Positions 1 through 18,757 of a stretch of 20,746 bases of DNA are shown piece by piece. The notes beneath the pieces are model-generated. The model was not told the DNA's origin, did no database searches, and was given only the letters and a program-made list of their open reading frames with translations. This stretch comes from Candidatus Saccharimonadota bacterium (GTDB lineage Bacteria > Patescibacteriota > Saccharimonadia > Saccharimonadales > Saccharimonadaceae). A program made the translations under genes and the position numbers. How positions within the stretch are numbered: position 1 is the first letter of the stretch; every line of letters starts with the position of its first letter. The stretch lies in the NCBI GenBank assembly GCA_020428185.1, contig JAGQNH010000021.1:1-20746 (forward strand), given 5' to 3'.

Positions 1-261
1 CGAGAGCTCACCGAAGCACGCCTGAAGAAGGTTGACAAACTGAAGGCGATCGCCGAGAAGCTCAACATGTCTCTCCCGGTAATGGCACTTGCCTGGTGCT
101 TGAAGAACCCGAACGTGAGCACGGTGATCCTCGGGGCGAGCAAGGAAGCGCAGTTGAAGGAGAATCTCGGGGCGGTTGAGGCGCAGGACCTCTTGACCGC
201 AGCCGTGATGGAAAAGATAGAGAAGGTACTGGACAATGCGCCGCTGCGGCCACAGTGGTGA
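1..261 (+). CDS. Aldo/keto reductase, C-terminal fragment
   Basis: The frame is open from the first base, so this is the last 86 residues of a longer protein. It shows the end of an aldo/keto reductase barrel: a stretch reading MALAWCLKNPNVSTVILGAS, followed by QLKENLGA. This is the NADP(H)-phosphate-binding strand and helix seen in the AKR6 / potassium-channel beta-subunit-like branch. Such enzymes are cytosolic NADPH-dependent carbonyl reductases; the substrate cannot be told from this piece. It converges on the next gene (35 bases between stop codons). GC is clearly higher than in the region right of 1380, and with its neighbour it looks like Bacteroidota DNA, so it probably does not belong to the organism of the main segment. 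Family assignment is secure; finer assignment is not. Confidence 0.85.
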   Translation, partial: RELTEARLKKVDKLKAIAEKLNMSLPVMALAWCLKNPNVSTVILGASKEAQLKENLGAVEAQDLLTAAVMEKIEKVLDNAPLRPQW

Positions 262-296
262 TCAGTGGTCGTTCAGGGAGGCGAATGATCGGTTTC

Positions 297-1357
297 CTAT
301 GTTCCGCTTTTCACGAAGTCATAGGTCTGTACCGACCCCGCGGAAACGACGCGTACCTTGTACGGGCCCGGCACAAGGTCCTGGACAGGAATGGTCATCG
401 CGCCGCTCGTCGTGCTGCTCATGGAATACACCATCCGACCGCTCGCATCCAACACCTGAACGTGGGCGGCTGCTGGTACAAGGGGTAGTGTGATCAGGTC
501 CTTGGTCGGGTTCGGGTAAGGAGCGGTTACCGCCTCCGGACGCTCTTGGATCCCAACGTTCCCACCTGTCAGGTCCAGGTCATCGACGTACAATACGGAG
601 CCCGGGTTCTGACCAGAGGAGATGACGATGAGCATGGTGTCCGGCTCTGCGAAGAGAAAGGTCGGTGAAGCAAAGGGGGTCCACCCGAAGCTTGCTGATG
701 TGACCTCGAAAGAGGCACTTCCAATGATCACGCCTTCACTCTTGAACACGACGCCGATCCGGGCCGTGTCCGAACCGCTGGGTTGATATTGATAGGCCCC
801 CACGAATTGTCCGGGGATGCTGGCATAGGGCGCCCCGCCAGAGTTGAAGTCCAGGACATTACCATTCGTAAGGAGGCCCGGAAGCGTATCGCCCTCTACT
901 GCAAAGGTTTCAATGCGTGCAGAGTATATCCCGGAATTGGCCGTATTGCTTTTCGTAACAGGTTGCAGACCAAAAGGCGAGGTAAGGCTGTTCCACGTGT
1001 TCCACAGGTCCGGATCCTCAATGGTGAGGTCGGACCATTCCTCAAAGTCGTGGTTCGGCAGTAGGTCCGGTACAGGCGCTGTAGGGCTGATCAACCGGAC
1101 GTCGTCCACCTCCAACCAAGAGCCGCTGGCCATGTTCATCTCATTGAACGGGTCCGAACTTGCGAAGGCCACGGTCACGCTATCCACATTCGTGAAGATC
1201 CCCGGGAGGGTCAAGGTGACTTCTTCCCAATCTGGTCGTGCCCCTCCGAAACGCCATTCTTCAGCAGCAACGACGAAGCCTTCGGACCATATCGCGAGCA
1301 GAGCGAGTGCTGAATCGTTCCCGACCAGTTCATGCCGGATCCAGCACTGCATTGCAC
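297..1357 (-). CDS. T9SS type A sorting-domain protein, 5'-truncated
   Basis: About 350 residues are readable, ending at a TAG at 297-299. The last ~75 residues form a type IX secretion C-terminal sorting domain: an APYPNPTKD start, a VQVLDASGRMVYS strand, an IPVQDLVPGPYKVRV strand and a terminal YDFVK. In the family this domain directs export across the outer membrane and is removed on secretion. Upstream are two beta-sandwich-like modules, each ending in a DDVRL or DDLDL type motif, resembling carbohydrate-binding or adhesion modules. T9SS is confined to Bacteroidota (Fibrobacteres-Chlorobi-Bacteroidetes group), so this gene is foreign to the Saccharibacteria-like remainder. The frame can be read to an ATG at 1412, but those first residues overlap the sigma-factor gene on the same strand in another frame. 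The true N-terminus is missing at the junction near 1360. Confidence 0.8.
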
Positions 1358-1385
1358 GGACGTCCGTCGTCAAGGCCGTACGATA
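1350..1385. other. Probable chimeric contig junction
   Basis: Left of here the DNA is GC-rich and Bacteroidota-like; right of here it is AT-richer and Saccharibacteria-like. Two genes on the same strand but in different frames both break here. The sigma factor is normal up to region 4.1 (ending GLDDGRP, codons down to 1357) and then reads into unrelated residues and a stop at 1330. The T9SS-sorted protein loses its N-terminus here. No transposase, tRNA, direct repeat or integrase is visible at the boundary. Confidence 0.7.
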
Positions 1386-2214
1386 ATTCGACCACACGCC
1401 TTTCTCGTTCACTCAATCGAGACATTATTTCATGAAGATCTTTCCTCAAATTTTCGATCTCCAAACCTTGTTGTGCCTCATTGGCGGTATACGAGTCGGG
1501 AATAATATCGCCCATTTCATTCGTCGAATCTTCACCACCAACTACAATATTTAAGCTTAGTGTGCTTTTTGAATAACCCGTATACTTCTCAATGTCAGCA
1601 ACTGTCATGCCCGCAGCATCTGCAAGCTCTTCATCCGTCACGCACCTTCCTAGTTCCGTTTCTAATTCGCCCTTAACCTTCGAGAGGGTGTTCACTTTTG
1701 CGACGACAGGGGTGGGTAGACGTACCAATCGAGCCTTATTGGCAATACCGCGACAAATCGCTTGTCGTATCCAGAAATTAGCGTATGTACTAAATTTATA
1801 CCCTCGTTTGTAATCAAACTTTTCTACAGCTGTAATCAGACCTATATTTCCATCCTGTATCAAATCAAGATATGGGACACTACCGCCCCTATACCCCTTC
1901 GCCTGTGCCGCTACAAGACGCAAATTTGCCTCAATCATACTATTTTTTGCAATTTCGCCACGCTTCTTCAGCTGGAGATAATCTTCTCGTGTTTCATCGC
2001 CTATAGTGTTGTCGTCAATTTCTGATTTTTCCAACAAAAAATCCGCATATAGCCCAGCTTCTATATCCTTGGACAGCTCTACTTCCTGCTCTGCATTTAG
2101 TAGCGCTATTTTGGCTATCGCAGACAAATACTCTCCCGTACTATCGACATAGTAATTTGACTCGTCACTTTCTACAGCAGAATTCTCGTCGGTAGAATTG
2201 TATATTTCGTTCAT
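1357..2214 (-). CDS. Alternative sigma-70 family factor (sigma C), truncated
   Basis: Sigma-70 family RNA polymerase sigma factor, cytoplasmic. About 286 native residues are present. An acidic N-terminus is followed by region 1.2 (GEYLSAIAKIALLNAEQEVEL), region 2 (EANLRLVAAQAKGYRG, LDLIQDGNIGLITAVEKFDYKRGYKFSTYA, NFWIRQAICRGIA), region 3 (VTDEELADAAGM) and region 4.1 (LSERERRVVELSYGLDDGRP). The region 4.2 helix-turn-helix is absent because the sequence changes at about 1357. The frame continues only into foreign residues to a stop at 1330. In the -10 recognition helix the usual WWIRQAIT reads FWIRQAIC, so most contacts remain. ATG at 2214 has AGGG four bases upstream and lies six bases after the preceding sigma gene, implying one operon of two sigma paralogues. 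Family certain; promoter specificity unknown. Confidence 0.85.
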
Positions 2215-2220
2215 ATAACC

Positions 2221-3234
2221 CTACGAGATATCTTCTAAAAGCTGCTTATAGCGCACCGCCTTATTGGATTGTCCTACATTCTCTCTAATTTTTTTCAATG
2301 CAGTATTTGCTATGCGTGATGCGTGATGATTTGAAATGGAATGAATTTTTGCGATATGCTCGAACGGCTGGTCTTCTGCAAACCTCAACCAAAGTATTTC
2401 TTTTTCTGTGTCGTTCAACCCGCTGTCATCACATATTTCACCTACAATTTCTCGTTTATTGAAATCGTCTATCTTGCCGATGATCTTCTCGTCAAAATCA
2501 GAATTTACAGTGTCTTTTATATAGTTTTCAAGCTCAGGATTATCATCAACGCCATTGTCATAGTCATAATTAAGACTCATAGTTTCTATTTCGATGCTTC
2601 TCAAATCCTCAACAGCCTCCTCTGACATATTCATTGCATCTGCCAACTCAGCAGTAGACATTTTTTTACCGGTTATCCCAAAGTAGTATTCTTCTTTCTG
2701 CCGAAGAGACTTTAATGTAATGCTCAAATCTCTTGGGATACGAATTGTACGAGAATAATTATGCACTGCTTTTGCGACATCGGCACGAATTCGCCTTGTG
2801 GCATATGTGCTAAAGGAAGCCGAAGTAGGACTACTCGGGTTAAATAACTCCGCAGCACGCATGAGCGCTATATTTCCCTCCTGAATCAAATCCTCTTCAT
2901 CAACTCCCTGAGATTTATTTATTCGCGCCCACTTAAATACAAGTCCGGTATTTGCCACCACAATACTATTGCGTGCCTCCATACCCTTTTTTACAGTGCA
3001 TAGCAACTCATCACGTTCGTTTCGAGATAATTCAGCATCAGAATCAAGCTGCTTCTGAGCACCTAATCCTGCTTGTAGATCTTCTACATGGGACAACATA
3101 GTATCATTATCAATTCTCTTGTGCTTTTTTGTATCATGACGATATAGTCCAAAAATATCATCACCCAAAAATATACCTTCATGACTAGGTGGGCATGTAG
3201 GAAATGATTCTGAGTGAGGATTTTTCGCTGTCAT
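2221..3234 (-). CDS. Divergent alternative sigma-70 family factor (sigma B)
   Basis: A 337-residue sigma-70 family protein. Region 2 is recognisable (DEEDLIQEGNIALMRAAELF, then ASFSTYATRRIRADVAKAV and RTIRIPRDL). Region 3 is ITGKKMSTAELADAMNMSEE and region 4 is LNDTEKEILWLRFAEDQ plus a helix-turn-helix HIAKIHSISNHHASRIA. The N-terminal ~60 residues match nothing I know. The two Trp that open the -10 element in housekeeping sigma are both Arg, and the Gln and Thr that read it (Q437, T440 in E. coli numbering) are both Ala. It therefore probably recognises a different -10 element or melts DNA poorly. A TTG at 3237 is possible, but ATG at 3234 is preferred because GGAG sits six bases before it. 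It is followed after six bases by a second sigma gene. Confidence 0.85.
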   Translation of the reverse strand: MTAKNPHSESFPTCPPSHEGIFLGDDIFGLYRHDTKKHKRIDNDTMLSHVEDLQAGLGAQKQLDSDAELSRNERDELLCTVKKGMEARNSIVVANTGLVFKWARINKSQGVDEEDLIQEGNIALMRAAELFNPSSPTSASFSTYATRRIRADVAKAVHNYSRTIRIPRDLSITLKSLRQKEEYYFGITGKKMSTAELADAMNMSEEAVEDLRSIEIETMSLNYDYDNGVDDNPELENYIKDTVNSDFDEKIIGKIDDFNKREIVGEICDDSGLNDTEKEILWLRFAEDQPFEHIAKIHSISNHHASRIANTALKKIRENVGQSNKAVRYKQLLEDIS

Positions 3235-3269
3235 CAAGTACTCCGAGAAAACTCTATAATTTTGTGATT

Positions 3270-3298
3270 ACATTACATATTTTTTTCATTTTTGTCAA
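3270..3298 (-). promoter_or_regulatory. Promoter of the tandem sigma genes
   Basis: On the minus strand a perfect -35 TTGACA (3293-3298) is followed by a 17-base spacer and a weak -10 TAATGT (3270-3275). The A/T-rich spacer contains a run of seven A. It would start transcription near 3263, giving a ~28-base leader with the GGAG ribosome binding site. The -35 and spacing support it; the -10 is poor. Confidence 0.5.
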
Positions 3299-3382
3299 TA
3301 TACTTAAATACTATATGCACACATAGCACTATCACCACACAATGCATACAAAATAATTATGCTTTTAGCTCGTCTTTTCTGA

Positions 3383-3388
3383 TACAAT
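3383..3388 (+). promoter_or_regulatory. Extended -10 box of P-loop kinase gene (leaderless)
   Basis: The sequence TGATACAAT is an extended -10 element (TGn plus TACAAT). The second in-frame ATG (3396) lies seven bases downstream, about where transcription should start. The first ATG (3390) would lie upstream of the transcript start. This favours the 3396 start and a leaderless mRNA. Confidence 0.5.
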
Positions 3389-3395
3389 AATGGTA

Positions 3396-3959
3396 ATGTC
3401 TGAGCAAAATGCAAAAATCATTGCCTTTGTTGGTCTCGATGGCTCCGGAAAATCCGCTGCCACAAATTATGTTATAGAGCGCGGATACCCAAAAGTGCAT
3501 TTTGGTAGCATCATAAAAAAAGCCCTCGATGACGAAGGTTTGGAATTTACACTCGAAAATGAGCGTGCAATGCGCGAAAAACTTCGCCAAAATGGCCAAG
3601 ATCTTGTAGTTAATCGAGTTGTAGAGCAAATCAGAAACCTTATCGATGCTGGTCAGCGTCGTATTGTTGTAGATGGAATGGGCAGCTGGAATGCATACAG
3701 AACACTCAAGCATGAGTTTCCTGGTGAGCTCGTCACTGTTGCACTAACTCCATTTCGATCTATTCGATTGCGTCGGCTCGAAAATCGCAACGAACGCCCC
3801 CTATCCGAGCACGATGCCTATGAGCGTGACTTTGATGAAATTGAAAACCTTGGCAAAGGTGGAGTTATTGCAATCGCCGACTACTCCATCCTGAATAACA
3901 GCAGCCAAGAACAATTACATATGCAGATAGACGAATTGATGCGCTTTATCGATTTCTAA
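3396..3959 (+). CDS. P-loop nucleotide/CoA kinase-like AAA protein
   Basis: A 187-residue P-loop protein (189 from the upstream ATG at 3390). Walker A is FVGLDGSGKS near the N-terminus. A strand ending RRIVVDGMGSW occupies the Walker B position, followed by LTPFRSIRLRRLENR, which resembles the lid/arginine region of dephospho-CoA kinases and nucleoside-monophosphate kinases. The C-terminal part, with RDFDEIENLGKGGVIAIADY, recalls the archaeal UPF0200 dephospho-CoA-kinase-like family. It probably phosphorylates a small molecule in the cytoplasm; the substrate is unknown. It runs opposite to the neighbouring genes and converges on another P-loop kinase-like gene, their stop codons overlapping in the four bases CTAA (3956-3959). 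Confidence 0.7.
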   Translation: MSEQNAKIIAFVGLDGSGKSAATNYVIERGYPKVHFGSIIKKALDDEGLEFTLENERAMREKLRQNGQDLVVNRVVEQIRNLIDAGQRRIVVDGMGSWNAYRTLKHEFPGELVTVALTPFRSIRLRRLENRNERPLSEHDAYERDFDEIENLGKGGVIAIADYSILNNSSQEQLHMQIDELMRFIDF

Positions 3960-4543
3960 AGCTCAAATCTATCAACCAAATGGTTCCTGTACGATTCGAG
4001 GTCCTGGAAATCATTTTCTACGAATATATCCGCAATCTCATGCACCGCTTTCATATTCAATGATCCAACTGGTGCATCAATCGGTGGATGCATCTCGCGG
4101 TATTCCTCTCTTTGAAAATCCTCAAATGAAATACTATCTTCAGATCTCCCCCTATTAGCAGACTGTAGACGATCATACCGAAGACGTTGATCAGCATCAA
4201 CCCATACAACAACACCTCCATGCGCATGCACATGATAGGCCTCGTCAGGATGACGTAAGCTCACTAGAGCAAGCCCTTTATACGTCTTCCGATCGCCCTC
4301 AAAATACGCATCTATAGCACGCTTAAACATTACACCGTTATCCCCAGAATCGACTCGCCACTTTGCGCTTAACAGTGCTTGGTTTTCCCTATTAACCTCC
4401 TGATTAGTCCGAAGAAGTTCATCCCTCAGTAATTCACTCACGCTATGGAAGCTATACGCGCATCGCTCAGCCAGCAATTTACCTAACTCATCCTTACCCG
4501 CACCATTAGTGCCAGAGATACCGACAATCTCCGGTAATTTCAT
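3956..4543 (-). CDS. P-loop kinase-like protein (dNMP/dephospho-CoA kinase-like)
   Basis: 195 residues with an N-terminal Walker A, GISGTNGAGKDELGKLLAER. The GKD ending of the loop is typical of dephospho-CoA kinase and phage-type deoxynucleoside monophosphate kinase folds. A later VVVWVDADQRLRYDRLQSANRGRSED segment looks like the strand plus lid with arginines. Its ATG overlaps the rpoD stop by one base (TAATG), so translation is coupled and it is the third gene of the dnaG-rpoD operon. At its 3' end it overlaps the convergent P-loop gene. The operon position hints at a link to nucleotide supply or DNA replication, but this is inference. Family level is reasonably sure; substrate is not. Confidence 0.7.
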   Translation of the reverse strand: MKLPEIVGISGTNGAGKDELGKLLAERCAYSFHSVSELLRDELLRTNQEVNRENQALLSAKWRVDSGDNGVMFKRAIDAYFEGDRKTYKGLALVSLRHPDEAYHVHAHGGVVVWVDADQRLRYDRLQSANRGRSEDSISFEDFQREEYREMHPPIDAPVGSLNMKAVHEIADIFVENDFQDLESYRNHLVDRFEL

Positions 4544-5550
4544 TAGCCTAGATACTCGTGAAGTTTCTTTGCGTCTTTGTGCTTGCGAAGTTTTGCAAGC
4601 GCCTTAGCCTCAATTTGTCGAATACGCTCACGTGTCACCGCAAACTCTTGACCAACCTCTTCGAGTGTATGGCTTTTGCCATTTTCCAAACCAAAACGCA
4701 TTTTGATAATTTTTTGCTCACGATCAGAAAGTGTCGACAATACTGCCTGCACTTGCTCCTTAAGGAGTTGCTCTGTGGCAGAATCTTGTGGCGTCTTGCC
4801 ATCTTCATCTTCGATAAAATCACCAAGGACACTATCCTCATCTTCACCATCACGTCCAACACCAGCATCAAGCGATGTGATATCTTGCTTGATTTTAATT
4901 ACATACTCTACCTTTTCGGGTTCCATCTCTAACTCTTTGGCTAGCTCTTCAATAGTTGGCTCTCGGTTTAACTCTTGTGTCATACGACGCTGCGTACGTA
5001 GCAATTTATTGATTGTCTCAACCATGTGGACAGGAATACGGATTGTTCGAGCTTGATCGGCAATAGCACGCGTGATGGCTTGTCGAATCCACCATGTCGC
5101 GTATGTACTAAATTTAAATCCTTTGTCTGGATCAAACTTCTCAACAGCGCGCAATAGACCAGTATTGCCCTCTTGAATAAGGTCCAGGAAATCCAGACCA
5201 CGACCGCTATATCGCTTCGCAATAGACACTACAAGACGCATATTTGCTTCGGCCATTTTGTCCTTCGCACGCTTATCTCCAGCAACAACCTTTTGCGCTA
5301 GCTCAAGCTCCTCTTCCGAATTCAATAGAGGAATTTTGCCGATTTCTCGAAGATACAATCGAACACTATCATCACTGATATCATCAAGATACTGACTATT
5401 GTTGAGGGATTCGTCATCAATCTCTTCTTCATCAACCAAATCATCGAGCACCGGCTCTTCAATATCATTCAGGTCATTTGATGCAACAGTATTGTCGTCA
5501 GATGATTGGTCGTCAACTAGGTGCATATCGTCGTCATTGTTTTCGGGCAT
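4543..5550 (-). CDS. rpoD: Housekeeping RNA polymerase sigma factor RpoD
   Basis: Primary sigma-70 factor, 335 residues: a short form lacking the long region 1.1 and carrying a ~55-residue Asp/Glu-rich N-terminus instead. Visible: region 1.2 ([21 protein letters not shown]), region 2 ([61 protein letters not shown]), region 3 ([17 protein letters not shown]) and region 4 ([17 protein letters not shown], then the helix-turn-helix [20 protein letters not shown]). All -10-reading residues (WW, Q, T) are intact, unlike the two other sigma genes nearby. The ATG overlaps the dnaG stop (TAATG). Its Shine-Dalgarno AAGGAG lies inside the last dnaG codons, so the two are translationally coupled. dnaG-rpoD is the core of the classical macromolecular synthesis operon. 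Confidence 0.97.
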
Positions 5551-7298
5551 TATCTTTCTCCTTTTATAAGCATGCTTAGTTGTCGCAAATATTCTGCAGC
5601 AGCCTCACTGTCTCCACGTTCCCGTGCCGCTGCCTCATTTTGTAATAATTCTTCTTTTTTTGCCTTTTGATAGTTCGTTTGTAACGATCGTAGAACTTCG
5701 GTTGCAGTTGAGACTCTATTCTCCACATTCCAATCCACATTATCTACGTCGGGATGTAATAATAACATCGTAACATATTTCTCATACTCCAACAAATTTT
5801 GTGGTATTGATTCAATTTTTTCGCCTCTGTTTTTTGCTATGTATGCACCGACACCCTGGCGATCCTTGCCGCGAAATATTACAGGATTCACACCTTCAAA
5901 CAACTCCTGAATACGCACATCTACCAACGCAACAGCCAGAAGTGAATCCTGAATCTTATCTGGCTCTTCATGTTTTTCTTCAGTGACATCATGAGGCTTC
6001 TTTATAGTCTTTGGTATTTTCGGTGCACTATCAGCCGATACGGACATTTTTCGCATCAATGCATCACGAGTTGTATCTGTCATTTTGGCAATTTTAGTCA
6101 GATAATGATCCTGCTCTACTGGGTCACCGAGTGTACGGATAACACTTAAAGCGGCTGTTGAAAATAATCGCTTGCCTGCCGCTGACTCCAAATCTTCACG
6201 CTTGGCAAATTGCTCAATAACCCAATCAACAGCAGGCTTTGCGTTATCGATTGCCAACTGCCACAATGCCGGATCTTTTTGAATGAGCTCATCAGGATCC
6301 TTGGCATTATCCGGTAATCCAATGATCGATAGTTCAACACCGACAGATTGTGCAATTGGTATCGCTCTCTCTGTCGCCGCAACTCCGGCTTTATCGCCAT
6401 CAAATGCTAAGCGTACATTAGATGTTAACCGACTGATTGCCCGTAAATGATGCTCAGTCATCGCTGTCCCTGCCGTTGCAACGACAGGACAAACTCCAGC
6501 CTGATGGCTACTGACGACATCGAGGTTACCTTCTACGACTACAGCGTAGTCAGCTTTACGCATCGACTCCTTTGCCTGCGAGAAACCAAATACATGCCTA
6601 CTCTTATCGTACAAAAGAGTCTGGGGTGTATTGAGGTATTTAGGTGCTGATGGGTCGTCTGAGATGATACGCCCAGTAAAACCTATCACCACTCCAGTAC
6701 TATCCATCAAGGGAATCATCATACGCCCTCTAAACAAATCACCTCCAAATCGATTTGTAAGCCCAGCGTCCTTTATCTCCTGTGGCGAGAAGCCTTTCTT
6801 CTTCAAAAAACCTGTTAGCGCCTCACCACTATCAGGTGCATAGCCAATTTTAAAATCCTGAACAACTTTTTTATTAAGTCCACGTCGCTTGAAAATATAC
6901 TGCTGTGCGTGTTCGTTGCGCAATAAGCTTTGCTGGTAGTACGCCGCCGCTAATTCATTGGCGGCAATCAGTCGCTTTTTCTTTTTTGCCAAATCCTGTG
7001 ACCCGCTACTTTGATACAAAGATAAATCGACTCCTGCTCGTCGTGCTAGTAGTTCAAGCGCCTGACGAAAATCCATTCCCTCGACTTCCATGACAAAACT
7101 AAATACATCACCACCCTTACCCGAACTAAAATCATGCCAAATATGTTTATCTGGACTCACGTAAAAACTAGGAGTCTTTTCACCGCTAAACGGACTAAGA
7201 CCCTTAAAATTCCGACCCGCGCGCTTTAATTGGACGTACTCTCCGATAACGTCCTCAATGTTAAGCCGCGCTCGCACCTCCTCTTTGGCCTCTTGCAT
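5550..7298 (-). CDS. dnaG: DNA primase DnaG, zinc-ligand-less
   Basis: Replicative primase, which makes RNA primers for lagging-strand synthesis with the DnaB helicase. 582 residues from ATG 7298; 588 from ATG 7316. The N-terminal domain ([31 protein letters not shown]) aligns with the zinc-binding domain, but all four usual ligands are gone (C40, H43, C61, C64 in E. coli become Ser, Ser, Asp, Ser). The RNA-polymerase domain is intact: [12 protein letters not shown], the TOPRIM glutamate in [10 protein letters not shown], and the metal-binding AFDGDKAG. The C-terminal ~150 residues are divergent, as usual for the helicase-interacting domain. The 7298 start is preferred because a TATACT -10 box lies six bases upstream and the shorter N-terminus matches the family. 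It heads an operon with rpoD and a P-loop kinase. Confidence 0.95.
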
Positions 7299-7304
7299 GC
7301 TACT

Positions 7305-7310
7305 AGTATA
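7305..7310 (-). promoter_or_regulatory. -10 box of dnaG operon (leaderless)
   Basis: TATACT on the minus strand, followed by AGTAGC and then the ATG at 7298. No Shine-Dalgarno fits in between, and no good -35 is visible 17 bases upstream. The arrangement matches the -10 boxes of orn and argS in this window and suggests transcription begins at or next to the start codon. Confidence 0.5.
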
Positions 7311-7357
7311 TGGCAATTACCACTCACTAGATAGTGGAAAATAGTATCCTCTTATGG

Positions 7358-15065: not shown

Positions 15066-16052
15066 TTAGTCTTTTTTCGCACCATTTACTTCATATGAAG
15101 TATTTGTTGCTTCAAAGAAATTAACGAGTTGCAGCGTATCATTGGCAGTAGCCATCCACTTTGCTGGGTTACCGACATTATAGTGAGCATCAAAGCCCAA
15201 TTCCTCGAGTCGTCTATCAGCAAGATATTTCACATATTGATTTATGTAGTCGGCGTTGAGTCCCAAAATACCATTTGGAAGCAAATCGTTATTGTATTGC
15301 TCTTCCATTTCGACACCGCTAAGAATCATGTTCTTAATCTCATCTGCAAATTCTTCTGTCTGCAGATCTTCGTTCTCTTCAAGCACTGTCAATATCAAAT
15401 TAATACCAAACTTGAGGTGCAATGACTCATCGCGAACAACCCAGTCAATAAGTGCACCGAAATTACGCAATAAATTACGCTGCCGGAAGCTAAGCGCGAC
15501 CATAAAGCCACTATAGAACCATATACCTTCGAGAATAATATTGTACGCAATCAGGTTTCGGATAAAGTCCTTCTTACCTTCTGTAGTAGTGATATCTAGC
15601 GTGTCCTCAGTCATACGCTTGATGAATTTCGTCTCGAACTCTTCCTTGCGTGCCATAGACGGCACTTCGATATGAGCTGCATACGATGCATCTCGATCAA
15701 TAGGAAATGTCTCAAGTACATACTCAAATGCCATGCAGTGATTTGCCTCTTCCCACATCTGCTTCGCAAGATACAGGTGACACTCAGCTGCATTAACATA
15801 TGGATACACTCCGAACGCAAGTGCCTTATTCACTAAGAGTTCATTCGGGTTAAAATAGCTCATCAAAAACGTCACAGCATGACGCTCTTCATCGCTCATC
15901 TTCTTCCAGTCAGACAAATCCTGACCTAATTGAATTTCGTTAGGGAACCAAGTATTCGCAACTGCTTGCTCATACAAATCGTATGCCCATTTATATGTGA
16001 CTGGTTTAAGTAGTAATCCGTCCTGGATACCAGTGCCGAGAATGCCTGCCAT
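15066..16052 (-). CDS. nrdB: Ribonucleotide reductase small subunit, class Ic-like
   Basis: The beta subunit (R2) generates the oxidising equivalent for ribonucleotide reduction. 328 residues. The metal ligands align with E. coli R2 by exact spacing within each helix pair: E71 (for D84), E102 (E115), H105 (H118), E175 (E204), E209 (E238), H212 (H241). The position of the radical tyrosine Y122 is F109 in EEANHCMAFEYV, and the first ligand is Glu instead of Asp. Both changes define class Ic enzymes such as that of Chlamydia trachomatis, which use a Mn(IV)/Fe(III) centre instead of a tyrosyl radical. W35 and the C-terminal Y320 (NTSYEVNGAKKD) are available for radical transfer to the large subunit. 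AAAGGA lies 15 bases upstream of the ATG. Metal use is inferred from sequence only. Confidence 0.93.
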   Translation of the reverse strand: MAGILGTGIQDGLLLKPVTYKWAYDLYEQAVANTWFPNEIQLGQDLSDWKKMSDEERHAVTFLMSYFNPNELLVNKALAFGVYPYVNAAECHLYLAKQMWEEANHCMAFEYVLETFPIDRDASYAAHIEVPSMARKEEFETKFIKRMTEDTLDITTTEGKKDFIRNLIAYNIILEGIWFYSGFMVALSFRQRNLLRNFGALIDWVVRDESLHLKFGINLILTVLEENEDLQTEEFADEIKNMILSGVEMEEQYNNDLLPNGILGLNADYINQYVKYLADRRLEELGFDAHYNVGNPAKWMATANDTLQLVNFFEATNTSYEVNGAKKD

Positions 16053-16107: not shown

Positions 16108-16281
16108 CTATTCGCAACCGTCGCAAATAGTAAGACTAGCTGGATCGAGTGGTGCTGACGCGACGCCTTTTGCTCGGGCTTGCTCGTCAGCTTGTGCCTG
16201 CGCAGCTTTCATTGCCGCGTCAATAGCGTCTAGCTTCTGCTCTAGAGTCATGTTTTCTTCGATAATATTTGATGCGTTCAT
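16108..16281 (-). CDS. Small protein with C-terminal CxxC: detached NrdA redox tail?
   Basis: A 57-residue gene lying exactly between nrdA and nrdB. AGGGGG sits six bases before its ATG. The sequence is a charged start (MNASNIIEENMTLEQKLDAI), an Ala/Gln-rich helix (DAAMKAAQAQADEQARAKG), a Pro/Ser linker (VASAPLDPASL) and the end TICDGCE. Its only cysteines are the CxxC pair, three residues from the C-terminus. Class I ribonucleotide reductase large subunits normally end in such a pair on a flexible arm, which re-reduces the active-site disulfide. Here NrdA lacks it, so this peptide could do that job in trans. Alternatives are a small thioredoxin-like carrier or a metal-binding accessory. The coding call is strong from RBS, operon position and composition; the function is inference. 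Confidence 0.7.
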   Translation of the reverse strand: MNASNIIEENMTLEQKLDAIDAAMKAAQAQADEQARAKGVASAPLDPASLTICDGCE

Positions 16282-16345
16282 TTTATACCCCCTATATTGA
16301 TTTGTTGTAACAATTTTTTATTCATTTATTCTCAGTACCCATAGG

Positions 16346-18757
16346 CTAACTATCCGAATTTACCGCTTGTTTCTTCGCAAATCCAAAACCTGCCTTGCGT
16401 GGACCGCTACCCGCGAGCGACTCTGCCTTGTTGACCTTCACCGTACTCTGCTCTGCCGTGTGCCGAGGTTTAACGTGTAGGTAGTACGTCGTCTTGAGAC
16501 CCTTCTTCCATGCAGCCATATAGATCTTTTCATACTCATCGATGTCGCGAGTCTCGAGGTACATATTGCGACTAATAGCCTGGTCGACCCACTTCTGTGC
16601 ACGCCCCGCTACTTCGATAAATGCATAAGGGCTCAGCTGGAAGCTTGTCTTGTAAACAGCCTTGATGTGATCTGGAATATCAGAAATCTGCTGAACATCA
16701 CCTTGCAGGCGCAATACGTCATCCTTCACCTTTTCCCATAAATCAAGTCGCTTTAGGTCGTTGATGAGGTTGACATTAACTTCGAGAAACTTGCCATTTA
16801 GAGTTGCGCGACTAAAGATCTGGGCGAATTGCGGATCGAGTCCGGGCGTCGTACCAGCAATATGGGCAATATTGGCAGTCGGAGCAATCGCCATCAATGT
16901 TGCGTTGCGCATGCCTTTTTTGACCTTCTTGCGAAGCACGTCCCAGTCCATACGAGCCTTTCGGCTGATATCTACACGTACGTGACGATCGTGGTCAAGC
17001 TGCTCAATCGTATCTATCGGAAGCATACCTTTGCTCCACCCACTGCCCTTGAAGTTTGGATAACTTCCAAGTTCTTTTGCGAGATCCGCACTTGCATCGA
17101 TCGCATGATAGCTGACAAACTCAGCCAACTGATCAATCAAGTCATATGACTCATCGGAATCATAGCTATAGCCTAGTCGCTCAATTACATCAGTGAAGCC
17201 CATGATACCAAGCCCAAGTGCACGGTTTTGAACATTTGAATTCATTGCTTCAGGAATCGGCGTATTTGTAATGTCGCACAGATTATCAAGTTGTCGAATC
17301 GCACTGCGTGCACTTGCAGCCAATCGGTCCCAGTCCCATTCCTTGTTCTCATCCAAAAATGCCGACAGGTTAATACTTACCAAGTTACATACTGATGTAT
17401 TGTCCTTGTCTTGTGGCAACGTAATCTCTGTACAAAGGTTGCTATGATGGATCGTTCCAGTATTGTTGTTGATTGCTCGGACATTGATAGTGTCTTTCCA
17501 CGTCAACCACGGGTGACTTGTCGCCTGAAGAATCGTAAGGATATTCCGCCATTGTTCACGCGCATTAACCTTGATAAAATCACGCATCTGCCCCTTGTCG
17601 GCCAACTTTACGTATTCATTGTAGCGCTTCGAGAAATCCTCACCGTAAAGCTCCGTTAGATCTGGTGTTTCAGCGGGATCAAACAAATACCATTCTTTGT
17701 TCTTCTCGACACGCTTCATAAACTCGTCGCTCAGATATACAGCAGTGTTTGCAATTCGAGTACGAAGATAAGGGTCGCCGCTATTTTGCTTTAGATCCAA
17801 GAACTGCGGAAAATTCAGGTGCCAGTTTTCCATATAAATCGCTGCTGAACCAGCTTTTTTACCCTTACGGCTAACTGCAAATAGCGCAGTATCAAGCATC
17901 TTGATAAACGGAATTGGTCCTGTCGACTCAGTGTTTGTCGTCTTCACCGGGCTGCCGGCCGCACGAAGCTTCGTGACTCCGATTCCGATTCCACCAGTAC
18001 CCTTTGCAATCCACATCGTGTCTCGCACACCCTTGGCGATTGCTTCCATGTCGTCGTCGATATTAAACAAGAAGCAGTTCGAAAGTTGTGGAAACGCACC
18101 ACCTGCGTTGATACGTGTTGAACCACCAGGAACATATTCAAGTCGACTCATGTGATCGTAAAAATCAAGCGCTGCAGCGGTTGGGTCCTTTTCATTGAAG
18201 CTTAGCCCCATCGCAATACGCATATGTGTATATTGTGGAACCTCAATCGGGTCACCACTCTGTCGGCGCAGAGCATAACGGTTCTTATTTGTCACAACGC
18301 CAAGATACTTACTCAAATCATCTCTCGATGGGTCAAGAGCGGCGGCGAGCTTCTTGATATCAAACACTTGCGCATTCATCCGCGTATCGAGCAGGCCGTC
18401 AGCCACACCTTCTTTTAGATATGTTGCAAAATGCTTCTGATGCAACTTCCGTAGCTCCGCGGCGTCGTTATAATGACCTAAAATTTTCTTGTAAATATTC
18501 TTTAGTGCCAAACGAGCGGCAATCTTATCGAAGTCCGGGTCGTCTTTGACATTCTGTAGTGCCGTATGGATAACCGCTTCATCCAATTGCTCTGTCGTAA
18601 TGCCGTCAAATAGTGTTAATTGTAGCTCCGTAGCTACCTGTACTACCTTTTGAATTTGATCCTTCAATCCTTCACTCGCTTCAACGAGTGCCAAATTGAC
18701 CTGGTTGGCGTCGAATGGTTCGCGGGTGCCATCGCGTTTAACCACATTGATGCTCAT
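16346..18757 (-). CDS. nrdA: Ribonucleotide reductase large subunit, lacking C-terminal Cys pair
   Basis: The alpha subunit (R1) converts ribonucleoside diphosphates to deoxyribonucleotides. 803 residues. An N-terminal ATP-cone (KRDGTREPFD to about residue 95) indicates dATP/ATP allosteric control. Active-site residues: C228 (LSNCFLF), N440, C442, E444 (SNLCTEI) and C457 (SVCNLVSINL). C228 and C457 form the redox pair, and C442 carries the thiyl radical. Y758/Y759 in TTYYLHVKPR are the radical-transfer tyrosines, and PTANIAHIAGTTPG binds substrate phosphate. The family normally ends with a CxxC or CxxxxC on a flexible arm; here the ~40-residue tail (ending KKQAVNSDS) has no cysteine, and the next gene supplies one. 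GGGAG lies nine bases before the ATG. Operon head. Confidence 0.97.
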   Translation of the reverse strand: MSINVVKRDGTREPFDANQVNLALVEASEGLKDQIQKVVQVATELQLTLFDGITTEQLDEAVIHTALQNVKDDPDFDKIAARLALKNIYKKILGHYNDAAELRKLHQKHFATYLKEGVADGLLDTRMNAQVFDIKKLAAALDPSRDDLSKYLGVVTNKNRYALRRQSGDPIEVPQYTHMRIAMGLSFNEKDPTAAALDFYDHMSRLEYVPGGSTRINAGGAFPQLSNCFLFNIDDDMEAIAKGVRDTMWIAKGTGGIGIGVTKLRAAGSPVKTTNTESTGPIPFIKMLDTALFAVSRKGKKAGSAAIYMENWHLNFPQFLDLKQNSGDPYLRTRIANTAVYLSDEFMKRVEKNKEWYLFDPAETPDLTELYGEDFSKRYNEYVKLADKGQMRDFIKVNAREQWRNILTILQATSHPWLTWKDTINVRAINNNTGTIHHSNLCTEITLPQDKDNTSVCNLVSINLSAFLDENKEWDWDRLAASARSAIRQLDNLCDITNTPIPEAMNSNVQNRALGLGIMGFTDVIERLGYSYDSDESYDLIDQLAEFVSYHAIDASADLAKELGSYPNFKGSGWSKGMLPIDTIEQLDHDRHVRVDISRKARMDWDVLRKKVKKGMRNATLMAIAPTANIAHIAGTTPGLDPQFAQIFSRATLNGKFLEVNVNLINDLKRLDLWEKVKDDVLRLQGDVQQISDIPDHIKAVYKTSFQLSPYAFIEVAGRAQKWVDQAISRNMYLETRDIDEYEKIYMAAWKKGLKTTYYLHVKPRHTAEQSTVKVNKAESLAGSGPRKAGFGFAKKQAVNSDS

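What the first reader, a model, noticed from the sequence alone, without database searches (positions are those of the whole stretch)
16108..16348. Ribonucleotide reductase redox tail encoded as a separate 57-residue protein
Seen: NrdA has all active-site residues but its last ~40 residues contain no cysteine. The very next gene, with its own AGGGGG ribosome binding site, encodes a peptide whose only cysteines are a CxxC at the extreme C-terminus (TICDGCE), after an Ala-rich helix and a Pro/Ser linker. Known: class I large subunits carry such a CxxC on a flexible C-terminal arm, which reduces the active-site disulfide after each turnover. Inference: the arm has been split off and works in trans, with the helix docking on NrdA. 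I know of no described split of this kind. There is no sign of a simple frameshift: 65 bases, stop codons and a good RBS separate the two.
Basis: partly seen in the sequence, partly recalled or inferred. Interest (0 to 1): 0.85.

Follow-up and report, generated by a model that had tools for sequence, protein, structure and literature searches.

The report
Detached redox tail of ribonucleotide reductase
In a group of tiny, reduced-genome bacteria, the swinging cysteine tail that recharges the DNA-building-block enzyme ribonucleotide reductase is missing from the enzyme and appears to be made instead as a separate 57-residue protein from a nearby gene.

Summary
The 57-aa ORF between nrdA and nrdB is a conserved gene (median dN/dS 0.13). 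In 295 genomes sampled from the window's family, 105 carry this NrdA. Of 101 NrdA C-termini seen (one cut by a contig end), none has a cysteine after the YYxH motif. In 98 of 101 a small ORF ending in CxxC lies downstream (antisense control 2 of 101); the other three genomes have the gene on another contig. Its last 14 residues share spacing with the fused tails of the nearest NrdA outgroups (D-P-x5-C-x2-C-Q/E), so it is most likely the ancestral redox arm. Frameshift, readthrough and artefact are unlikely: gaps of 3-181 nt occur in all three frames, and in 26 of 96 loci the gene follows nrdB. All 12 single-contig genomes checked have one class I/II large subunit. NrdA of two other lineages also lacks the cysteines, with a free CxxC peptide after nrdB (one genome) or away from the nrd genes (seven genomes; three more showed none). 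Class II NrdJa/NrdJb is a published precedent for a redox tail in trans; my searches showed no class I case. Action in trans is inferred; helix docking on NrdA has no support yet.

The parts
16346..18757 (-). nrdA, class I RNR large subunit, 803 aa, ATP-cone plus barrel; no Cys in the C-terminal 46 residues; ends ...GPRKAGFGFAKKQAVNSDS
   Evidence: Pfam PF03477, PF00317, PF02867; NF005101 1326.8 bits over cut-off 988; Cys positions
16282..16345 (-). 64-nt gap between nrdA and the small gene; puts the small gene in another frame
16288..16293 (-). AGGGGG, likely ribosome-binding site, 6 nt before the ATG
   Evidence: sequence; G-rich runs also upstream of the homologues listed
16108..16281 (-). 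57-aa gene for the detached redox tail (stop codon included)
   Evidence: found in 10 of 10 genus genomes, own included, 100 of 295 family genomes, 129 database proteins, own included
16168..16245 (-). helix, residues 13-38, proposed docking element
   Evidence: AlphaFold2: helix 13-38, block pLDDT 75-80; invariant M11, L13, K16, L17, A19, I20 in 28 rows. Docking itself not shown
16111..16152 (-). residues 44-57, PLDPASLTICDGCE, the segment that aligns without gaps with the fused NrdA tails (such as PVDPQERLQCDSCQ)
16114..16125 (-). C53-x-x-C56, proposed redox pair
   Evidence: both Cys invariant in 28 of 28 rows
15066..16052 (-). nrdB, class I RNR radical-generating subunit, 328 aa
   Evidence: PF00268 1.1e-73; NF007186 402 bits over cut-off 237

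Best explanation
The small gene encodes the ancestral C-terminal redox arm of NrdA as a free protein. NrdA (with NrdB) reduces the nucleotide and is left with an active-site disulfide between C228 and C457. The small protein, perhaps held near NrdA by its conserved helix, brings its terminal CxxC into the active site, takes over the disulfide, and is then reduced by glutaredoxin or thioredoxin. Shown here: a separate conserved gene, loss of the NrdA cysteines, similarity to fused tails, linkage with nrdA/nrdB, a single class I/II large subunit in the complete genomes checked. Inferred: thiol-disulfide exchange in trans, docking by the helix, identity of the final reductant.
For: (1) NrdA tail without Cys in 101 of 101 C-termini seen, and a small CxxC ORF downstream in 98 of 101, with the other three on another contig. 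(2) Co-occurrence in 295 family genomes: both 97, NrdA only 8, small gene only 3, neither 187 (counted); of the 8, four carry a divergent CxxC gene and four show only NrdA fragments without the C-terminus. (3) The five nearest outgroup NrdA (53-61% identity) end in CP[VI]DPQxRxxC[DE]SCQ; spacing D at -12, P at -11, C at -5, C at -2 is the same in 98 of 98 small ORFs. (4) A profile of the f11 free peptide, run over 379 genomes, finds five fused NrdA tails and six window-type small proteins at the tail segment, though at weak E-values (9e-4 to 0.07). (5) One PF02867 protein in 12 of 12 single-contig genomes. (6) A thioredoxin or glutaredoxin domain in 13 of 13 genomes checked. (7) Three separate losses of the NrdA Cys tail forced by well-supported branches of a 31-row tree. 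(8) In the split class II enzyme NrdJb is reported to do this job in trans (PMC4520616).
Against: No biochemical data. The helix is no more confident in a chain with NrdA (block pLDDT 71-77) than alone (75-80), so docking gets no support. The tail similarity rests on about 14 residues, and the true matches share their E-value range with 12 others taken as chance; of the 14 family genomes there that have the gene, six matched. The N-terminal part varies: in G411, G412, G447 and G566 it is hardly recognisable. In f11, three of 11 genomes searched have Cys-less NrdA but showed no free peptide by the pattern used, and G651 has a fused tail plus two free peptides.
Confidence: 0.86

Rival explanations
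1. The small protein is a different RNR-linked factor (regulator, metal carrier or chaperone of NrdA/NrdB), and Cys-less NrdA is reduced directly by a small glutaredoxin or a low-molecular thiol.
For: The helix region is as well conserved as the tail in the main group. Reduction of RNR active sites by artificial thiols such as DTT is reported (PMC4520616, passages). Three f11 genomes have Cys-less NrdA with no free peptide found.
Against: What the divergent copies share with the rest is mainly the DP motif and the terminal CxxC, which match the fused NrdA tails. Only two cysteines, so no four-Cys metal site in one chain.
Confidence: 0.08
2. The tail is rejoined to NrdA by frameshifting, readthrough or protein ligation, so the working enzyme is a normal single chain.
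For: In a few loci the small gene is close and in frame (L019: one stop and one codon between).
Against: Gaps of 3-181 nt in all three frames (23, 27 and 19 of 69 loci), own likely ribosome-binding site, and position after nrdB in 26 of 96 loci. Pfam showed no intein-type domain in the window's NrdA or small ORF.
Confidence: 0.02
3. Assembly or sequencing artefact, or a decaying gene fragment.
For: The window is a contig of a fragmented assembly (146 contigs) and its first 1.4 kb looks chimeric.
Against: Same arrangement in about 100 genomes, including single-contig ones; median dN/dS 0.13.
Confidence: 0.01

Closest known systems
Split class II RNR NrdJa/NrdJb of Pseudomonas aeruginosa (PMC4520616, passages read)
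   Same: The redox-active C-terminal cysteines sit on a separate polypeptide from the same operon; NrdJb is reported to mediate thiol-disulfide exchange for NrdJa and to be needed in vivo.
   Different: Class II (B12-dependent); [quoted passage not shown] Here class I, 57 aa, one predicted helix and a short tail. Sequence relation of the small protein to NrdJb was not tested directly.
C-terminal CxxC arm of class I NrdA (fused), e.g. outgroups L033-L036
   Same: Same terminal motif and spacing; same enzyme family.
   Different: There it is joined to NrdA through a variable linker; here it is a free protein with an N-terminal helix.
Genes-in-pieces NrdA of phage Aeh1 (PMC2988022, passages read)
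   Same: NrdA made as two polypeptides that together give an active enzyme.
   Different: Cut by insertion of a homing endonuclease gene; none was seen between nrdA and the small gene here, and only the redox tail is separate.

Membership tests
Class I RNR large subunit (NrdA) | ATP-cone, all-alpha and barrel domains; family model over cut-off | tested here: met
Class I RNR large subunit (NrdA) | Active-site motifs (three Cys, NLCTE, Tyr pair) | tested here: met
   C228, C442, C457, NLCTE at 440, TTYYLH at 756; roles of the residues from recall
Class I RNR large subunit (NrdA) | C-terminal double cysteine on the same chain (CxxC in 1737 of 2022 class I sequences, PMC9531940, passage read) | tested here: not met
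   no Cys after TTYYLH in the window; none in 101 of 101 C-termini seen in the family
Class I RNR large subunit (NrdA) | Adjacent nrdB | tested here: met
Split redox-tail RNR (type NrdJa/NrdJb) | Catalytic chain without the terminal Cys pair plus a separate Cys-bearing chain encoded nearby | tested here: met
Split redox-tail RNR (type NrdJa/NrdJb) | Class II, B12-dependent | tested here: not met
   NrdB present and best family model is a class I alpha subunit
Split redox-tail RNR (type NrdJa/NrdJb) | Cys-rich zinc-finger domain on the separate chain | tested here: not met
   two Cys only in 120 of 120 listed proteins; no Pfam family over its cut-off
Split redox-tail RNR (type NrdJa/NrdJb) | Both chains needed for physiological activity | not testable with these tools
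   needs an enzyme assay

The most novel reading that the evidence does not exclude
In Patescibacteria the redox arm of class I RNR has been detached at least three times into free peptides: window type (57 aa, with the nrd genes, throughout the NrdA-bearing part of the family sampled), G133 type (71-aa open frame after nrdB, one genome), and f11 type (32-37 aa, WDKPMxCPIDPxxLxECxxCQ, away from the nrd genes). The free peptide is then a minimal electron carrier without a thioredoxin fold, dedicated to RNR: a new kind of RNR component.
Probability: 0.6. Interest if true: 0.82.

Novelty: new variant of a known kind. Interest (0 to 1): 0.74.

Why it matters
RNR makes the DNA precursors, and in the 12 single-contig genomes checked this is the only class I/II RNR large subunit. 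A redox arm that works as a free 57-residue protein would show that the arm needs no covalent tether, give a natural system in which arm and enzyme can be varied separately (binding, stoichiometry, regulation, choice of reductant), and add a so far unnamed component to the RNR of a large, mostly uncultured bacterial group.

Tried and rejected
Frameshift, readthrough and gene decay: judged unlikely. Docking of the helix on NrdA: AlphaFold2 on a read-through chain (nrdA stop read as Gln, L019) and on the small protein alone gave similar helix confidence; coordinates are not given, so contacts could not be measured. Structural relatives: the A1 profile found no convincing solved structure (best E 0.013). 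Pfam and NCBIfam give the small protein no family over its cut-off. Free-tail profile over the phylum: of 24 genomes with a match at E up to 0.1, 12 are the f11 peptide itself (1), fused NrdA tails (5) or window-type small proteins (6); the other 12 were taken as chance, of which I looked closely at one (G081, L222). A database search with the f11 peptide's open frame found two proteins only. Not searched: class III RNR, thioredoxin reductase.

Literature: eight searches of an open-licence library listed no described class I split of this kind. Listings were capped (20 of 40; 20 of 33; 10 of 25; 15 of 37). Passages were read in six papers: PMC4520616, PMC9669993, PMC9531940, PMC4390871, PMC2988022, PMC5704485. 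Work on the yeast Rnr1 C-terminal domain acting in trans is recalled; one search did not list it.

Full report
Observation. The window holds nrdA (16346-18757, minus), a 57-aa ORF (16108-16281, minus) and nrdB (15066-16052, minus) in that order. NrdA matches the ATP-cone, all-alpha and barrel domains and the class I model NF005101 over its cut-off. It has four cysteines, C228, C442, C457 and C494; none follows TTYYLH at 756. The small ORF has two, in the terminal TICDGCE. The gap is 64 nt, the small ORF is in another frame, and AGGGGG lies 6 nt before its ATG.

Conservation. All 10 genomes of the genus, own included, have the small gene. A database search gave 129 proteins, own included, 120 listed; 110 of the 120 are 57 aa long and 119 have the CxxC within the last ten residues. 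The exception (P0002) has extra residues after CDGCE on a 1.1-kb contig. The few with a source name are called 'hypothetical protein', from Saccharibacteria, a 'Nomurabacteria bacterium' or 'Patescibacteria group bacterium'. Across 15 copies the median dN/dS is 0.129 over 59 unsaturated of 105 pairs.

Linkage with Cys-less NrdA. I searched 295 genomes of the family, drawn from a larger group, with a profile of the small protein and with NrdA at E up to 1e-60. Comparing the lists: both in 97, NrdA only in 8, small gene only in 3, neither in 187. I examined the C-terminal end at 102 of the 105 NrdA loci; G429, G450 and G524 were left out because the fragments found there stop before the C-terminus. 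101 of 102 showed the YYxH motif (G533 did not); one is cut by a contig end (G400). None has a Cys after the motif. 98 of 101 have an ORF downstream on the same strand, with an ATG 25-80 codons before its stop, that ends in CxxC plus 0-2 residues. By that ATG rule 97 are 47-79 aa (64 are 57 aa) and one (L157, G456) reads 28 aa because a run of N interrupts it. On the antisense strand of the same stretches 2 of 101 have such an ORF. The other three (G009, G546, G400) carry the gene on another contig. Four genomes missed by the profile (G411, G412, G447, G566) have divergent copies that keep DP, five or six residues, CxxCQ. The three genomes with the small gene only are G396 (67% complete), G424 (contig starts about 200 nt before the gene, nrdB follows) and G455 (weak partial match, not examined).

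Position. Where nrdB is in the locus, the small gene lies between nrdA and nrdB in 70 and after nrdB in 26. Leaving out L157, the between-gap runs from 3 to 181 nt (median 67) in all three frames (23, 27 and 19 of 69). 24 of the 26 after-nrdB loci, and 0 of the 70 others, share an SEQ variant in the NrdA tail, which suggests one move within the family.

Origin of the tail. The nearest outgroups (L032-L036, other families of the phylum, 53-61% identity) have fused tails such as CPVDPQERLQCDSCQ; the L032 gene is interrupted by one stop in that record, and its tail was read from the second part. Aligned without gaps, the last 14 residues of the small protein correspond. In 98 of 98 small ORFs D is at -12, P at -11, C at -5 and C at -2 (I had required a DP somewhere in the ORF, which removed no locus). 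GFG near the end of NrdA is kept in 100 of 101, the exception being the cut one, so the break lies after it.

Independent cases. A tree of 31 NrdA, tails trimmed, groups the 19 rows of the window's family beside fused relatives, and its well-supported branches force three changes of the label fused or Cys-less. In G133 (f21), NrdA ends without Cys, and a 71-aa open frame straight after nrdB ends in GDPNLNVCESCQ, like the fused tails GDPNLNICESCQ of its relatives; the six other f21 tails seen are fused. This case rests on one genome. In f11, 11 of 12 NrdA lack the Cys tail. A DNA pattern for CxxC ends, run on 11 f11 genomes (G655 not given), found a conserved 32-37-aa ORF outside the nrd operon in 8 of 11; one of these, G651, has a fused NrdA and two free copies; in G237 it lies about 65 kb from nrdA on the same contig. 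G650, G657 and G661 showed none. A profile of that peptide over 379 genomes matched, beyond itself, five fused NrdA tails and six window-type small proteins at the tail segment, with E from 9e-4 to 0.07, among 12 other matches taken as chance. That f11 NrdA uses this peptide is inference.

Setting. All 12 single-contig genomes checked have exactly one PF02867 protein; class III was not searched. Of 13 genomes, 7 have a thioredoxin domain and 12 a glutaredoxin domain; each has at least one.

Structure. AlphaFold2 gives a mostly confident NrdA body, a low-confidence linker, a helix and a low-confidence tail; alone, the small protein has a helix at 13-38 and a weaker one at 47-55. No evidence for or against docking.

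Mechanism. Class I RNR is re-reduced through a C-terminal Cys pair that passes electrons from thioredoxin or glutaredoxin to the active site (PMC5704485, passages). For the split class II enzyme the separate NrdJb is reported to do this (PMC4520616, passages). By the same logic the small protein here should reduce the C228-C457 disulfide. That step, the docking and the reductant are inferred.

Known or new. [quoted passage not shown] PMC9669993 (passages) says class I RNRs almost exclusively have a C-terminal double Cys. Eight searches of the open library, some listings capped, showed no class I case with the tail in trans; most subscription papers are not covered. I therefore rate it a new variant of a known kind.

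Noticed in passing
window 1-1400: Probably chimeric: GC 0.56-0.59 against 0.34-0.46 in windows after 1400; an ORF with a Por_Secre_tail sorting domain and an aldo-keto reductase end; the sigma-factor ORF 1330-2214 lacks region 4 at this junction.
   Followed up: partly
window 1330-5550: Three sigma-70 type genes close together (1330-2214, 2221-3237, 4543-5550), next to an ORF at 5550-7316 that looks like dnaG (recall, not tested); the first one is truncated.
   Followed up: no
L164 5973-6188: G133: separate tail ORF straight after nrdB (71-aa open frame...GDPNLNVCESCQ) with Cys-less NrdA; relatives fused.
   Followed up: partly
L210 4950-5057; also L195, L196, L199, L201-L203, L206, L209: f11 family: conserved 32-37-aa ORF with WDKPMxCPIDP and a CxxCQ end outside the nrd operon, in genomes whose NrdA mostly lacks the Cys tail; G651 has both fused and free forms.
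   Followed up: partly
L145 3180-3302: G502 has a second, shorter CxxC ORF (40 aa...MTLEQKLQAI...DLICEGCE) downstream of the usual one.
   Followed up: no
L036 (G028): The fused linker contains INASTTITQDS, resembling the small protein's start MNASTIINDTM; a possible trace of how the start arose, or chance.
   Followed up: no
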